From the NCBI GenBank assembly GCA_022711665.1, contig JAKLEN010000003.1:372001-436000 (forward strand): a stretch of 64,000 nucleotides of DNA, in the 5' to 3' direction. The notes beneath the pieces are model-generated. The model worked only from the letters and a program-made list of their open reading frames with translations, was not told where the DNA came from and did no database searches. Position 1 is the first letter of the stretch. Each line of letters begins with the position of its first letter. Origin of the DNA: Acidobacteriota bacterium (GTDB taxonomy: Bacteria > Acidobacteriota > Aminicenantia > Aminicenantales > Saccharicenantaceae). Positions 26,949 through 31,995 of the stretch are shown in pieces. The position numbers and the translations under genes were made by a program.

Positions 26949-28619
26949 ATGGCCAAGCCGGCGAACGAGCCGATCCCGAACATCCGGGCCCCGCGCGGTT
27001 CGCGCCTGACGACCAAGGGCTGGTCGCAGGAAGGCGCGCTGCGGATGCTGATGAACAATCTCGACCCCGAAGTGGCCGAGAAGCCGGCCGAGCTCATCGT
27101 CTACGGCGGCACGGGGAAGGCCGCCCGCAGCTGGGAAGCCTATCGGGCCATCGTGGCCAGCCTGAAGAAGCTCGAGAACGACGAGACGCTCGTCGTCCAG
27201 TCGGGCAAGCCCGTGGCCGTGTTCCGGACCCACGCCGAGGCGCCCCGGGTCCTCATCTCCAACGCCATGATCGTCCCCAAGTGGGCCAACTGGGACGAAT
27301 TCCGGCGCCTCGAGGCGCTGGGCCTGACCATGTACGGCCAGATGACGGCCGGCAGCTGGATCTACATCGGCACCCAGGGCATCCTCCAGGGCACCTACGA
27401 GACCCTGGCGGCGGCGGCCCGGAAGCACTTCGGCGGCTCGCTCAAGGGCCGGCTGACCCTGACCGCCGGGCTCGGCGGCATGGGCGGGGCCCAGCCGCTG
27501 GCCGTGACCATGAACGACGGCGTGGCCATCGTCGTCGAGGTCGACCGGGAGCGCATCGAGCGGCGCCTGCGGACGCGCTACGTCGATACGATGACCGACA
27601 GCCTGGACGAGGCCCTGAAGCTGGCCGGCGAGGCCGGGCGCAAGGGCCTGCCGTTGTCGATCGCCCTGCTCGGCAACGCCGCTGACGTCCTGCCCGAGCT
27701 CGTCCGCCGCGGCGTCACGCCGGACGTGCTGACCGACCAGACCTCGGCCCACGACGAGCTCAACGGCTACGTCCCCAACGGGATGCCGTACGAGGCGGCG
27801 CTGGCCCTGCGGAAGAAGGATCCGGCCGACTACATCCGGCGCTCGTACGAGGCCATGGCCGCCCATGTCCGGGCCATGCTCGAGCTCCGGAAGCGCGGCG
27901 CCCGGGCCTTCGACTACGGCAACAACATCCGCGGCCAGGCCCAGAAGGCCGGCGTGGCCGAGGCCTTCGACATACCCGGCTTCGTGCCCGAATACATCCG
28001 GCCCCTCTTCTGCCTGGGCAAGGGCCCGTTCCGCTGGGCGGCGCTGTCGGGCAAGCCGCAGGACATCTACGCCACCGACGAGGCCGTGCTCCGGGAGTTC
28101 CCCGAGGACGAGGCCCTGGCGCGATGGATCCGCAAGGCCCGGGCCCAGGTCAAGTTCCAGGGCCTGCCGTCGCGCATCTGCTGGCTCGGCTACGGCGAGC
28201 GGGCCCGCTTCGGCGCGGTCATCAACCGGCTGGTGCGGACGGGCAGGATCAGCGCGCCCATCGTCATCGGCCGGGACCACCTGGACACCGGATCGGTGGC
28301 CTCGCCCAACCGCGAGACCGAGGGCATGCGCGACGGCTCGGACGCCATCGCCGACTGGCCCATCCTCAACGCCCTGCTCAACGCGGTCAACGGCGCCTCG
28401 TGGGTGTCCGTGCACCACGGCGGCGGGGTCGGCATCGGGCTGTCCATCCACGCCGGCATGGTCACGGTGGCCGACGGCACGGCGGCCATGGGGCGGCGCC
28501 TGGAGCGCGTCCTGACGGCCGACCCGGGGCTGGGGGTGGCGCGGCACGCCGATGCGGGCTATCCCGAGGCCATCGCCTGCGCCAAGAAGAACGGCATCAA
28601 GATCCCGATGATGAAGTGA
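26949..28619 (+). CDS. hutU: Urocanate hydratase
   Basis: A 556-residue cytoplasmic NAD+-dependent enzyme converting urocanate to imidazolone propionate, the second step of histidine degradation. Diagnostic stretches are [41 protein letters not shown]-like [29 protein letters not shown] for the NAD site, and the active-site region [11 protein letters not shown] followed by [14 protein letters not shown] near the end. Length is normal. hutH, hutI and other hut genes are not in the window, so the pathway must be completed elsewhere. GAGGAG precedes the ATG, and it is transcribed from its own promoter. Confidence 0.97.
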
Positions 28620-28734
28620 CCGGGCCGGGAGGGGTGGTCCCCGAAAGGTGACGGTCCCGTCCGCGATTCTCCGGCGGGCGTAAACGGGCGTTGTCAGCGC
28701 CCCGGAACCCCCTTATCCATCACTTTCCTTTTAA

Positions 28735-28763
28735 AGAGGTTGGACCTCTACGGGATCGTCCCG
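28735..28763. promoter_or_regulatory. Two tandem palindromes upstream of the sigma-54 promoter
   Basis: AGAGGT-TGG-ACCTCT (28735-28749) and CGGGA-TCG-TCCCG (28751-28763) are both perfect inverted repeats with three-base centres. They abut each other and end three bases before the -24 element, a place more suited to a repressor or local regulator than to a distant enhancer-binding protein. They could also be hairpins with no operator role. Confidence 0.5.
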
Positions 28764-28766
28764 GCC

Positions 28767-28782
28767 TGGCATGCGCCTTGCT
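28767..28782 (+). promoter_or_regulatory. Sigma-54 (RpoN) promoter of the peptide-exporter operon
   Basis: TGGCAT-GCGCC-TTGCT matches the consensus TGGCAC-N5-TTGCW, with GG at 28768-28769 and GC at 28780-28781, exactly 12 bases apart. Transcription would start near 28793, leaving an 18-base leader that holds the AAAGGAG Shine-Dalgarno of the peptide gene. No matching -10/-35 pair was found here. Confidence 0.7.
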
Positions 28783-28810
28783 TTATAAGGGGGCGAAAGG
28801 AGAAAGCCCC

Positions 28811-29026
28811 ATGAAGAAGCTGGCGCTCTTGGTCCTGGCAGGCCTGATCCTGTTCACGGCCGTCGTGCCCTTCGCTTCGGCCGCGGTGAACAAGCAGGGC
28901 ACCTGCAATTCCAACCACGTCTCGTGCCGGGAGTACGTCTTCTCGATCGACGAACCCTGGTACAAGATGGCGGTGATGCTTACCGGATGCGACGTCGCCT
29001 TCGGCAAGTGCATGCTCGGCATCTGA
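28811..29026 (+). CDS. Small exported four-cysteine peptide (twin CX6C)
   Basis: A 71-residue product: a signal peptide (KKLALLVLAGLILFTAVVPF, cleavage likely after FASA at residue 24) and a mature peptide of about 47 residues. The four cysteines (32, 39, 60, 67) form a symmetrical CX6C-X20-CX6C pattern, suggesting two disulfides after export. The mature part also holds aromatic and acidic residues (REYVFSIDEPWYKM). ATG 28811 is chosen over an upstream in-frame ATG (28691) because AAAGGAG lies eight bases before it, the sigma-54 promoter lies between them, and the signal peptide starts there. I know no family for it. Followed by a propeller, a thioredoxin-like protein and an ABC exporter. Confidence 0.75.
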   Translation: MKKLALLVLAGLILFTAVVPFASAAVNKQGTCNSNHVSCREYVFSIDEPWYKMAVMLTGCDVAFGKCMLGI

Positions 29027-29094
29027 CGCGGAGGGACCGGGGCGGGCCTCCGATGCCGGGGACCCGCCCCGCGGCTTACCGTCGAGGGGGTGGG

Positions 29095-30105
29095 ATGATC
29101 ACGAAAGGCCGTGGCTTTGCCGCGGCGGCGGTCCCGCTCGTCGCCGCGATCGTCGTATTCGCGGGAGGCGCGGCCTTGGCCGCGGCCGGGCCGGACGTGG
29201 CTAGGTGGAAGGCCGCCGAGATCGAACGGCCGGACAATCCCGAGGAGGCCGCCGTCCTGGGACGGCCGCTGGCCCTGGCCTACGGCGACGGCGGCCGGCT
29301 CTATGTCGCCGACGCCCTCGACTGCGCCGTCAAGGTCTTCTCCAGGCAGGGCCGGTACCTGCGCTCGGTCGGGCGCAAGGGCAACGGCCCCGGCGAGCTC
29401 GTCCTGCCGTCGGGCGTGGCCGTTTCGGAGGGCGCTATAGTCGTCGCCGACAAGCTCGGCTTCCGCATCCAGATCTACGACGACGGCGGGCGGGCGCGCG
29501 GCGGCTTCAAGGTCCCGTTCCCGCCGGACCGGGTCTACGCCCTGGGGGGCGGCCGGATCCTGGTCACCGCCAATCCGACCGGGAAGCAGCCGGGCGAGCG
29601 GCTGCTCCATGCCTATGATGCTGCCGGCCGGGAGATCTGGAACGGGATGGAGGCGACGCGAACGGCCGACCCGATTTCCGACGCCTTCCGCAACATGATC
29701 CTGGTCTGCCCGGGCGAGCTGGCCGACGTCTACGTCGTCCGCCGGAGCGGCGACCGGACCATCCGCCGCTTTTCCGGCGCGGGGAGGCCGCTTGGCGCGA
29801 TCGAGGTCGATGAGCGGCACGCCTTCAAGCGCCTGGCCGTGCCGTCCGGGCGCGGCCTGGTCGGGCTCGAGGGCTTCTGCTGGGCGGCCGCCCGCGACGC
29901 CGGTCTCTTTTACCTCTCGGCGCCCGACGCCGTGGCCGGCCGGGACCTCGGGCCGGGCCGGACGGTCTCCGTCGTCGACGGCGGGGGCCGCCTCCGGGCC
30001 GTGATCGAGCTGGCCTGCCCTGTCCACCGCTTTCTCGTCGCCGGCGGCCGCCTGTTCGCCATCGACGACGAAGGCGATCTCCGCCTGTTCGAGGTCGGCC
30101 GGTGA
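29095..30105 (+). CDS. Exported six-bladed (NHL-like) beta-propeller protein
   Basis: A 336-residue protein with a signal peptide (FAAAAVPLVAAIVVFAGGAALA). Blade motifs repeat through the mature part: LALAYGDGGRLYVADALDCAV, VGRKGNGPGELVLPSGVAVS, IVVADKLGFRIQIYDD, with the 'G.GPGEl..P.gva' signature of NHL-type six-bladed propellers. It is probably periplasmic and binds a partner or ligand. ATG 29095 is chosen because GAGGGGG precedes it and the signal peptide begins there. It starts 68 bases after the peptide gene, and its end overlaps the thioredoxin-like gene (GTGA). Six-bladed propellers beside small exported peptides and thioredoxin-like proteins are also known from Bacteroidota (NVEALA peptides); kinship is only an analogy. 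Confidence 0.85.
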   Translation: MITKGRGFAAAAVPLVAAIVVFAGGAALAAAGPDVARWKAAEIERPDNPEEAAVLGRPLALAYGDGGRLYVADALDCAVKVFSRQGRYLRSVGRKGNGPGELVLPSGVAVSEGAIVVADKLGFRIQIYDDGGRARGGFKVPFPPDRVYALGGGRILVTANPTGKQPGERLLHAYDAAGREIWNGMEATRTADPISDAFRNMILVCPGELADVYVVRRSGDRTIRRFSGAGRPLGAIEVDERHAFKRLAVPSGRGLVGLEGFCWAAARDAGLFYLSAPDAVAGRDLGPGRTVSVVDGGGRLRAVIELACPVHRFLVAGGRLFAIDDEGDLRLFEVGR

Positions 30106-30572
30106 GCCCGGTCCTGCCTTTCCTGGCGGCGGCGCTGGCCGCGGCCGGGCTCCAGCAGGGCCCCGCGGCCCGGCCTTCCCCGGCCCTCATCTGCTCGACG
30201 CTCGAGGAAGCGGCCCCGCCGGGCACCGGCGCGGTGCTCCTGGTCTTTTTCTCGATCGAGTGCCCGGTCTGCTATGAGGAGCTTTTCGAGTCGCGCTACC
30301 TCATCGAACGCGGCGGCTGGCCCGTGACCGTCGTCGGGGTGGCCCTGGCCCTGCGGGACGACCTGCGGACCTTCCTCGACAAGCACGCCTGGACCGCGCC
30401 GGTCGTCCTGGACCGGCGCAAGACCCTCTTCCGGAAATATAAAGTGGATGCCGTTCCCTTCAGGACGCTCCTGCTGGGCGCGGAGGCGGTCTACCGGGAC
30501 GATCCCTATCTCGGACCGGACGCCCGCCGGGAGGAGATCGTCCGATGCCTGACCCGGCACTTCTCGCGCTGA
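30102..30572 (+). CDS. Exported thioredoxin-like protein with CPVC motif
   Basis: A 156-residue protein with a GTG start overlapping the propeller stop. It has a short signal peptide (VLPFLAAALAAAGLQ), then a thioredoxin fold: strand VLLVFFSIE, redox motif CPVC at 54-57, strand VTVVGVAL, and a cis-proline in AVPF (Pro119) before the last strands. This is the TlpA/redoxin pattern, so it probably handles thiol-disulfide exchange outside the cytoplasm. The four-cysteine peptide of the same operon is the obvious candidate substrate, by inference. A further cysteine is at 31 and another near the C-terminus (IVRCLTR). Confidence 0.85.
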   Translation: MSPVLPFLAAALAAAGLQQGPAARPSPALICSTLEEAAPPGTGAVLLVFFSIECPVCYEELFESRYLIERGGWPVTVVGVALALRDDLRTFLDKHAWTAPVVLDRRKTLFRKYKVDAVPFRTLLLGAEAVYRDDPYLGPDARREEIVRCLTRHFSR

Positions 30573-31279
30573 CCTGGCGGGTCTCCCGCCGGGGCCTCCT
30601 GGCCTCGCCGTTCGTCGTCGCGGCCGGCCTGGCCTTTCCGGCCTTCGTCGTCTGGACCGGTTTCCGCGAGTCCTATGAGACGGCGGCCAAGCTCTTCTTT
30701 TTCGCCCTGCCCCACCTCTTCCTCATCGGCAGCCAGGACGCGGTTCGGAGCGAGGTCGAAAGCGGGGCCCTGGAGAGCGTCCTTTTTATCGGGGGGCGGT
30801 TCCGCGGCTATCTCGGCCTCAAGAGCCTCTTCGGCGCGGGTCTCATCGCGGCCTATGCCGCCCTGCTCTTCGGCCTTCTCGCGGCCTGGGGCGCGGCCGC
30901 GGGCGGTCTCGAGCCCGCCTTCGTTGCCCGGTTCGGCCTGGCGCTCCTGGCCGGGCTCTATTACGTCGCCGTCGCCGGGGTGTTGAGCCATGTCCTGCGG
31001 GGAGCGGCCGGGGTGCTGGCCCTGCTCCTGGCCCAGGCTGCGGCCGTCATCGTCCTGATCCTGACGACGACGGCCCGGGCGGGCCTTCTCGACTACGCGG
31101 CCGCCGGGCGATTCCCGGCGATCGGCGCCGCGCTCCGGTTCGGGGCCCTCGTCGCCGTCCTGCCCAACATCGTCGTCGCCGGCCGGCTGCCCGCTTTCGC
31201 CGCCGAGATCCTGGCCATCTTCGTCCTAGCCGTGCTCCTCCGCGGCCGGCTCGTCCGGGCGCTGGAGATCCGGAAATAG
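30545..31279 (+). CDS. ABC-2 type membrane protein of the peptide operon
   Basis: A 244-residue inner-membrane protein with about six hydrophobic segments (FVVAAGLAFPAFVVWTG, LIAAYAALLFGLLAAWGAAA, ALLLAQAAAVIVLILTT, ILAIFVLAVLLRGRL). The acidic stretch SEVESGALESVLF after the second helix is typical of ABC-2 permeases of this size. It overlaps the thioredoxin-like gene by 28 bases; the start is supported by GGAGGAG eight bases upstream. The next gene is an ABC ATPase, so the pair forms an exporter. Its dedicated cargo could be the small peptide, though the peptide already has a Sec signal, so another substrate is possible. Confidence 0.85.
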   Translation: MPDPALLALTWRVSRRGLLASPFVVAAGLAFPAFVVWTGFRESYETAAKLFFFALPHLFLIGSQDAVRSEVESGALESVLFIGGRFRGYLGLKSLFGAGLIAAYAALLFGLLAAWGAAAGGLEPAFVARFGLALLAGLYYVAVAGVLSHVLRGAAGVLALLLAQAAAVIVLILTTTARAGLLDYAAAGRFPAIGAALRFGALVAVLPNIVVAGRLPAFAAEILAIFVLAVLLRGRLVRALEIRK

Positions 31280-31287
31280 GAGGGACC

Positions 31288-31995
31288 ATGATCGAAGCGC
31301 ACAAGCTGGCCAAACGGTACGGCCGCGTCGAGGCCCTGCAGGACGTCAGCTTCAAGATCCGTAAGGGCACGATCACGGCCATGCTCGGCGAAAACGGCGC
31401 CGGCAAGACGACCACCCTCAAGATCGCGCTGGGCTTCCTGCGCCCCGACGCGGGGTCGGTGGCGATCGCCCCGGGTCGGGTCGGCTACGTGCCGGACCGG
31501 CCGGCCTTCCCGGCCGGCCTCGACGGCTGGACCATCCTCGGCCTGTGCCGGAACCGGGAACGTGCCGGCGGCGAGGGCAACGGCCGGTCCTTCGCGGCCG
31601 CGGTGCTGGGCGCGTCGCGAAGCCTGCTCTTCGATCCGGGGCTGCTGCGGCGGGCCCCCGGCGCCTATTCGGCCGGCAACGCCAAGAAGTTCGCCTTCCT
31701 CCAGAACCTCGTTCTCGCGCCGGACCTGCTCGTCGCCGACGAGCCCTATGCCGCGCTCGACCCGCCGGCCGTCAAGTGCGTCCGCGACATCTTCTGCGGC
31801 CTGCGCGACGCCGGCAAGACCGTCCTCATCAGCTCCCATATGCTGGCCGAGATGGAGCGGATCGCCGACGGCTTCGTCGTCCTGCGCCGCGGCCGGACGA
31901 TCGTCCACGCCGGGCTCCGGGAATGGCGGCTGCTGCGGGCCTCCCGGACCGGCCCGGACCTCGAATCGGTGTTCCTGCTCCTGTCCGGCCCTTGA
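31288..31995 (+). CDS. ABC transporter ATPase of the peptide operon
   Basis: A 235-residue ATPase with Walker A GENGAGKTTT (about residues 35-44), Walker B LLVADEPYAALD and switch histidine in SSHMLAEME. The signature motif is unusual: YSAGNAKKFAFLQNL in place of the common LSGGQ/YSxGM form, with Asn where Gln or Met is normal. AGGAGG sits four bases before the ATG, eight bases after the permease stop. As the last gene of the five-gene operon it completes the exporter. Its 3' end is 20 bases from the convergent glgC stop, with no obvious terminator between. Confidence 0.9.
   Translation: MIEAHKLAKRYGRVEALQDVSFKIRKGTITAMLGENGAGKTTTLKIALGFLRPDAGSVAIAPGRVGYVPDRPAFPAGLDGWTILGLCRNRERAGGEGNGRSFAAAVLGASRSLLFDPGLLRRAPGAYSAGNAKKFAFLQNLVLAPDLLVADEPYAALDPPAVKCVRDIFCGLRDAGKTVLISSHMLAEMERIADGFVVLRRGRTIVHAGLREWRLLRASRTGPDLESVFLLLSGP

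What the first reader, a model, noticed from the sequence alone, without database searches (positions are those of the whole stretch)
28735..31995. Sigma-54 operon for a twin-CX6C exported peptide with its own redox protein, propeller and ABC exporter
Seen: five genes on one strand with short gaps or overlaps encode a 71-residue exported peptide with cysteines at 32, 39, 60 and 67 (CX6C-X20-CX6C), a signal-peptide six-bladed propeller, a signal-peptide thioredoxin-like protein with CPVC and cis-Pro, an ABC-2 permease and an ABC ATPase. Known: CPVC thioredoxin-fold proteins exchange disulfides outside the cytoplasm, and small peptides beside propellers and thioredoxins occur in Bacteroidota (NVEALA type). 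Inference: the redox protein forms the two disulfides, the propeller is a binding partner, and the transporter handles the peptide, a modifying metabolite or self-protection. I know of no described system with this set. This is my main candidate for a new system.
Basis: partly seen in the sequence, partly recalled or inferred. Interest (0 to 1): 0.85.

Follow-up and report, generated by a model that had tools for sequence, protein, structure and literature searches.

The report
Conserved operon exporting a disulfide-hairpin peptide
A small exported peptide predicted to fold as two helices stapled by two disulfide bonds is encoded, with its own thioredoxin-like protein, a beta-propeller and usually an ABC transporter, in an operon under a special (sigma-54) promoter that recurs across uncultured Aminicenantes bacteria; its function is unknown and I found no described system like it.

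Summary
The window (Candidatus Aminicenantes, Acidobacteriota) carries five co-directional genes at 28811-31995 behind a near-perfect sigma-54 promoter (28767-28782): a 71-aa Sec-type peptide, a PF17170/NHL propeller, a TlpA/ResA-like redox protein, an ABC-2-fold permease and an ATPase. Peptide and TlpA-like gene co-occur (35 genomes with both, 1 and 1 with one only, 23 with neither), and the peptide lies beside propeller and TlpA in all 19 relatives first fetched. CX6C-spaced cysteine pairs hold in 42 of 45 distinct mature peptides; three paralogues lost the two outer cysteines together. AlphaFold gives a confident helical hairpin whose cysteines face in nested pairs. The sigma-54 element lies about 42 bp before the ATG in most relatives. 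Diverged cassettes (often two peptides + propeller + CxxC protein) sit at the same hutU site in other families of the order; nothing convincing was found outside it. The ABC pair is absent in several lineages, so "exporter" is doubtful. Best reading: a vertically inherited unit for oxidative folding of a secreted hairpin peptide, propeller and TlpA acting like a split NHLRC2/SOQ1 module. What the peptide does is not shown.

The parts
28683..28692 (+). candidate upstream activator site AAC-N4-GTT (AACGGGCGTT), 84 bp upstream of the sigma-54 element; tentative
   Evidence: block conserved in the genus alignment; AAC-N4-GTT also in L059, L062, L067 and before one other sigma-54 site of the genome (L107); found in 0.8% of random 160-bp stretches of the window; absent in other relatives
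28767..28782 (+). sigma-54 -24/-12 promoter TGGCATGCGCCTTGCT, 44 bp before the peptide ATG
   Evidence: same element about -41 to -44 from the ATG in all 13 same-genus genomes checked and most other relatives; near-invariant in the alignment
28795..28802 (+). ribosome binding site GAAAGGAG of the peptide gene
   Evidence: sequence; invariant or nearly so in 13 genomes
28811..29026 (+). exported peptide, 71 aa, CX6C-X20-CX6C; predicted two-helix hairpin
   Evidence: AlphaFold2 of the mature part: mean pLDDT 87.9, helices 2-21 and 26-45
29095..30105 (+). exported NHL-type 6-bladed beta-propeller (PF17170)
30102..30572 (+). exported TlpA/ResA-like thioredoxin-fold protein, CPVC, cis-Pro; both CxxC cysteines and Pro119 invariant in 20 homologues
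30545..31279 (+). ABC-2-fold membrane permease, 244 aa
   Evidence: ABC2_membrane models hit in a few homologues; closest fold NosY of NosDFY, then PmtCD; model of moderate confidence
31288..31995 (+). ABC ATPase, 235 aa, intact Walker A/B and H-loop; signature YSAGN in place of LSGGQ

Best explanation
A vertically inherited sigma-54 operon that makes and oxidatively folds a secreted helical-hairpin peptide. RNA polymerase with sigma-54 starts at 28767-28782 when an activator is on. The peptide, propeller and TlpA-like protein are each exported by Sec through their own signal peptides (sequence and established knowledge). In the periplasm the mature peptide of about 47 aa folds into two antiparallel helices and is stapled by two nested disulfides, C1-C4 and C2-C3 (predicted). 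The TlpA-like protein handles these thiols while the propeller cup holds the peptide beside the CxxC site, as a two-gene counterpart of the fused Trx + NHL propeller of NHLRC2/SOQ1 (inferred). VKOR in the inner membrane could recharge the redox protein (a VKOR gene is present; its role is inferred). The NosY/PmtD-like ABC pair is an optional inner-membrane add-on that removes or releases the peptide or drives the propeller, more likely protection or release than primary export (inferred). The end product is most likely a secreted peptide acting on other cells or on neighbours (inferred; the weakest step).
For: Peptide and TlpA-like gene co-occur: 35 genomes with both, 1 and 1 with one, 23 with neither, Fisher p 2e-14, phylogeny not corrected. 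Peptide adjacent to propeller and TlpA in all 19 relatives first fetched and in the larger regions. CX6C pairs in 42 of 45 distinct mature peptides, with X20 between them in 41. AlphaFold hairpin, pLDDT about 94 in the core, with Cys 8+43 = 15+36, so the cysteines face in nested pairs. Three paralogues lost both outer cysteines and kept both inner ones, as nested pairing predicts. CxxC and cis-Pro invariant in 20 TlpA homologues. The propeller profile also hits the Trx-NHL proteins NHLRC2 and SOQ1, whose propeller cup and Trx site form a cleft proposed to bind a protein ligand (PMC6107167). Sigma-54 element at about -42 in most loci. In two close species pairs the peptide has the highest dN/dS of the operon, 0.61-0.71 against 0.14-0.33. 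Tandem or heteropaired peptides recur. One diverged locus (L155) keeps all five genes in the same order.
Against: No activity, binding or secretion beyond the signal peptide was shown. The dN/dS rests on 71 codons and two close pairs. Order-wide vertical inheritance at one chromosomal site is not typical of bacteriocins, which are usually patchy. The ABC genes are missing in L060-L062, L067 and L070-L072. In three stand-alone paralogues the outer cysteines are gone, so the full four-Cys set is not always needed. [quoted passage not shown]
Confidence: 0.5

Rival explanations
1. Antagonistic (bacteriocin-like) peptide with the ABC pair as self-protection: the peptide, or a pair of peptides, inserts into membranes of related cells; the ABC pair (LanFEG/PmtCD-like) clears it from the producer's inner membrane.
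For: Fast-evolving peptide with fixed cysteines; tandem pairs, and heteropairs with hydrophobic Gly-rich segments, in other families; ATPase near lantibiotic-protection, DrrA and GldA models, permease fold second to PmtCD; peptide + thiol oxidoreductase + ABC parallels pediocin pedABCD; alpha-hairpinin antimicrobial peptides among the non-significant fold matches.
Against: Vertical, syntenic inheritance at the hutU site across families; no separate immunity gene; the ABC pair is absent in several lineages that keep the peptide; one peptide copy per genome in the window's genus.
Confidence: 0.3
2. Envelope assembly module: the peptide is a structural or chaperone component of the cell surface; the propeller and a NosY-like ABC pair form a mechanotransmission machine acting on periplasmic proteins, as NosFY acts on NosD.
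For: Closest fold of the permease is NosY (prob 1.00, TM 0.62, 24% identity, but E about 0.002); the operon encodes exported proteins next to the ABC pair; the 11 strict sigma-54 sites of this genome all precede genes that read as exported or envelope proteins, matching the published link of sigma-54 to the bacterial exterior (PMC3162934); deep vertical conservation.
Against: ABC genes dispensable in several lineages; the permease profile does not find NosY by sequence and the model has pLDDT 71; the peptide evolves faster than the rest.
Confidence: 0.25
3. Metal or haem chaperone: the four cysteines bind a metal and the TlpA-like protein keeps them reduced, as TlpA does for ScoI and CoxB.
For: Exported four-Cys protein with a TlpA-family protein; NosDFYL, the closest ABC fold, assembles a copper enzyme (own knowledge).
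Against: CX6C spacing on two facing helices fits disulfide staples; no conserved His or Met beside the cysteines; outer cysteines can be lost as a pair; no metalloenzyme gene in the cassette.
Confidence: 0.1

Closest known systems
NHLRC2 / SUPPRESSOR OF QUENCHING 1 (Trx-like domain fused to NHL propeller)
   Same: Thioredoxin-fold CxxC domain paired with an NHL six-bladed propeller; the propeller profile hits both in the PDB; their cleft is proposed to bind a protein partner (PMC6107167)
   Different: Two separate exported genes here; CPVC-type rather than CCINC active site; a dedicated peptide gene, sigma-54 promoter and ABC pair in the same operon
Pediocin PA-1 operon pedABCD (class IIa bacteriocin with thiol oxidoreductase PedC)
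   Same: Small four-Cys secreted peptide with a dedicated thiol-disulfide protein and an ABC transporter in one operon (PMC4919988, PMC5465099; abstracts only)
   Different: Sec signal peptide, not a double-glycine leader with a peptidase-type ABC; helical hairpin; propeller; no immunity gene; sigma-54; vertical order-wide inheritance
Alpha-hairpinins of plants (for example Nigellin-1.1, Jug r 2)
   Same: Helix-loop-helix stapled by two disulfides; some rank among the Foldseek matches
   Different: CX3C spacing (own knowledge) versus CX6C here; no significant fold or sequence match; different kingdom
NosDFY copper-enzyme assembly ABC system
   Same: ABC-2 permease plus ATPase encoded with an exported beta-repeat protein; permease fold best matches NosY
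   Different: NosD is a beta-helix, not a propeller; no NosZ or NosL in the cassette; the ABC pair is optional
Bacteroidota small peptides beside PF17170-type propellers (NVEALA type; from memory)
   Same: Small exported Cys peptide next to a propeller of the same Pfam family (PF17170 in 20 of 20 homologues)
   Different: Peptide matches no Pfam or NCBIfam model; conserved four-Cys hairpin; TlpA and ABC genes; not compared directly

Membership tests
Sigma-54-dependent operon | -24/-12 element with correct GG-N10-GC spacing close to the start | tested here: met
Sigma-54-dependent operon | rpoN present in the genome | tested here: met
   PF04552 E 2.1e-57
Sigma-54-dependent operon | upstream site for an enhancer-binding protein | tested here: inconclusive
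   AAC-N4-GTT candidate in only part of the relatives; activator not identified
NVEALA-type Bacteroidota peptide | match to a curated peptide family model | tested here: not met
   no Pfam or NCBIfam family at E<=1 for P0001
NVEALA-type Bacteroidota peptide | gene next to a PF17170-type propeller | tested here: met
   (that NVEALA genes have this neighbour is recalled, not tested)
Class II bacteriocin operon (pediocin-like) | double-glycine leader and ABC transporter with N-terminal peptidase domain | tested here: not met
   Sec-type signal in the sequence; the ATPase (235 aa) is a lone nucleotide-binding domain
Class II bacteriocin operon (pediocin-like) | antimicrobial activity | not testable with these tools
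   needs purified peptide
Alpha-hairpinin | CX3C-Xn-CX3C | tested here: not met
   CX6C-X20-CX6C
Alpha-hairpinin | two antiparallel helices | tested here: met
   AlphaFold model with two helices and a short turn; disulfides themselves not observed
NHLRC2/SOQ1 | Trx and NHL propeller fused in one chain with CCINC | tested here: not met
   separate genes, CPVC
NosDFY | NosY-family permease by sequence | tested here: not met
   profile finds no NosY chain among the PDB sequences; only the fold resembles it
TlpA/ResA-like thiol-disulfide proteins | exported thioredoxin fold with CxxC and cis-Pro | tested here: met

The most novel reading that the evidence does not exclude
A new class of diderm peptide system: Sec-exported hairpin peptides stapled by two nested disulfides, matured by a propeller + thioredoxin pair that works as a dedicated peptide-folding device, under sigma-54 control, inherited at one chromosomal site throughout Aminicenantales and diversified into pairs of unlike peptides.
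Probability: 0.35. Interest if true: 0.85.

Novelty: new variant of a known kind. Interest (0 to 1): 0.72.

Why it matters
It is a clean, order-wide functional unit in a widespread uncultured group, with a peptide family that matches nothing in Pfam or NCBIfam. If the propeller and TlpA act together on the peptide, it gives a small and experimentally simple model for the Trx-NHL partnership whose molecular role in animals (NHLRC2) and plants (SOQ1) is still unclear. It may also be a source of very stable small helical peptides. The promoter gives a ready handle on when these bacteria use it.

Tried and rejected
The peptide profile against PDB sequences gave only chance matches, mostly antibody constructs. 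Foldseek of the peptide gave no significant match, as expected for a bare two-helix hairpin. The two weak phylum hits outside the order (E about 0.005) are N-terminal parts of long unrelated ORFs. Possible HdeA, Toxin_4 and Dr_adhesin matches in a few homologues are weak and inconsistent and were rejected. The other six PF17170 propellers of this genome have no such peptide beside them, so the peptide goes with this propeller subfamily and not with the fold in general. Paper searches for NVEALA and for Aminicenantes with sigma-54 found nothing.

Full report
What is there. The window lies in a 3.25 Mb, 95% complete genome whose named relatives are Candidatus Aminicenantes / Saccharicenans MAGs, apart from some records labelled Acidobacteria or Acidobacteriota and two labelled Clostridiales. 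The five ORFs of the finding are real and co-directional, with overlaps typical of translational coupling. The peptide is 71 aa with a Sec-type signal and cysteines 32/39/60/67. The propeller passes the Pfam cut-offs for PF17170 and NHL, the TlpA-like protein for AhpC-TSA, and the ATPase for ABC_tran. The permease has no Pfam hit itself, but three matches to ABC2_membrane models occur among its 15 aligned homologues.

Conservation of the unit. Searching 60 genomes (the window's own and 59 relatives) with the TlpA-like protein found strong homologues (E<1e-15) in 36, and the peptide profile found peptides in 35 of these and in one of the other 24. The single TlpA-positive exception (G027) has its hit near a contig start. 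In every one of the 19 relatives first fetched the peptide sits directly upstream of propeller and TlpA. Twenty larger regions show that peptide + propeller + TlpA is the core. The ABC pair follows in L059, L063, L064 and L073-L078 but not in L060-L062, L067 or L070-L072. Tandem peptides occur in L060, L061 and L063, and stand-alone paralogues in L062 and L065-L068. In 297 genomes of the phylum no convincing member was found outside the order. A genome-contig scan with the TlpA-like alignment returned 27 loci, none of them clearly outside this group.

The peptide. Forty-five distinct mature sequences were collected. CX6C-X20-CX6C is constant in all but four: one has X21, and three paralogues lack C1 and C4 while keeping C2 and C3. 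AlphaFold2 on 44 aligned mature sequences gives two helices (2-21 and 26-45), mean pLDDT 87.9, about 94 over the middle 30 residues. The cysteines lie at 8, 15, 36 and 43, symmetric about the turn, so the expected pairing is C1-C4 and C2-C3, which the paired loss of the outer cysteines supports. Disulfides themselves were not observed. Foldseek has no significant match; plant alpha-hairpinins are among the listed ones.

Promoter. TGGCATGCGCCTTGCT at 28767-28782 matches all 12 fixed consensus positions used and recurs at about -41 to -44 from the ATG in all 13 same-genus genomes checked, in most relatives of other genera and families, before stand-alone paralogues (L067 at 11 of 12 positions, L065 and L066 at 10 of 12) and in diverged cassettes (L153, L155, L156, L163; L155 at -52). 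It is weak or absent in some (L070, L152, L158, L162). The genome has 11 strict matches against 2 control matches, and the downstream genes read as exported or envelope proteins (reading by eye), in line with the published view that sigma-54 controls the bacterial exterior (PMC3162934). rpoN is present.

Wider family. A broader profile and 16 more regions revealed diverged cassettes in other families of the order: two unlike four-Cys peptides + propeller + a small exported protein with CPLC, CFNC or similar in L069, L150, L161 and L163 (L069); variants in L152, L156, L158 and L162; and all five genes in the same order in L155. Several sit at or near the hutU-like gene, as in the window (L069, L150, L153, L154, L156, L161), so the site looks ancestral and the unit mostly vertically inherited.

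Partners. The TlpA-like CxxC and cis-Pro are invariant in 20 homologues; the nearest solved relatives are ResA-type proteins, YkuV and StoA. The propeller profile hits NHL proteins, including NHLRC2 and SOQ1, in which a Trx domain and an NHL propeller form a cleft proposed to bind a protein partner (PMC6107167). A VKOR gene exists in the genome, and in L065/L066 stand-alone peptides lie near a gene that reads as a VKOR-type protein (by eye). The permease model (pLDDT 71) is closest to NosY of NosDFY, then PmtCD. The ATPase has intact Walker motifs and a YSAGN/YSLGN signature.

Evolutionary rate. In two close species pairs the peptide dN/dS is 0.61-0.71 against 0.14-0.33 for the other four genes. 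Over all same-genus pairs the ratio pN/pS is 0.54 for the peptide and 0.32-0.49 for the rest. This is consistent with a faster-evolving secreted product, but the gene is short and the sample small.

Reading. Shown: the unit, its cysteines, its promoter, its distribution. Predicted: the hairpin and nested pairing. Inferred: oxidative folding by TlpA with the propeller as holder, and the role of the ABC pair. Not known: the biological purpose. A secreted peptide acting on other cells is somewhat favoured by its rate and by the tandem and paired copies; an envelope-assembly role is favoured by the vertical inheritance and the NosY-like fold. These two readings overlap with the best explanation, which concerns how the peptide is made rather than what it is for, so the confidences given are not exclusive. 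The absence of the ABC pair from several intact cassettes argues against it being the essential exporter.

Noticed in passing
genome G000; loci L106-L116: Eleven strict sigma-54 promoter matches in the genome all precede genes that read as exported or envelope proteins (pseudopilin-like, TonB/carboxypeptidase-regulatory-like, peptide-binding, chemotaxis receptor-like): a sigma-54 regulon of the cell exterior.
   Followed up: partly
window 28683-28692; L107: Palindrome AAC-N4-GTT 84 bp upstream of the sigma-54 element, also before one other sigma-54 site (L107) and in some relatives: possible activator site.
   Followed up: partly
L065:8604-8849 and L066:7108-7362: Stand-alone four-Cys peptides of this family lie close to a gene that reads as a VKOR-type (disulfide-generating) membrane protein, in both genomes of one genus.
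   Followed up: no
L069, L150, L153, L161, L163: Heteropairs of four-Cys hairpin peptides, one with a 21-22 residue and one with a shorter (about 15-18 residue) inter-motif loop, rich in Gly and hydrophobic residues; in L163 the second peptide seems to have lost its third cysteine (loops counted by eye).
   Followed up: partly
L093 and L099 (JARYMI01 contigs): Public MAG labelled 'Clostridiales bacterium' carries two cassettes of this order-specific family; probably a mislabelled or contaminated record.
   Followed up: no
L008:1-790; L012:1501-1953: In G005 the ATPase match is split over several segments (frameshift or assembly error), and in G004 the TlpA match contains a stop codon; possible decay or sequencing errors.
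   Followed up: no
window 26949-28619: Urocanate hydratase-like gene (hutU; named from its sequence) directly upstream; the hutU-cassette neighbourhood is kept in other families of the order, in some with a similar regulator-like gene next to it.
   Followed up: partly
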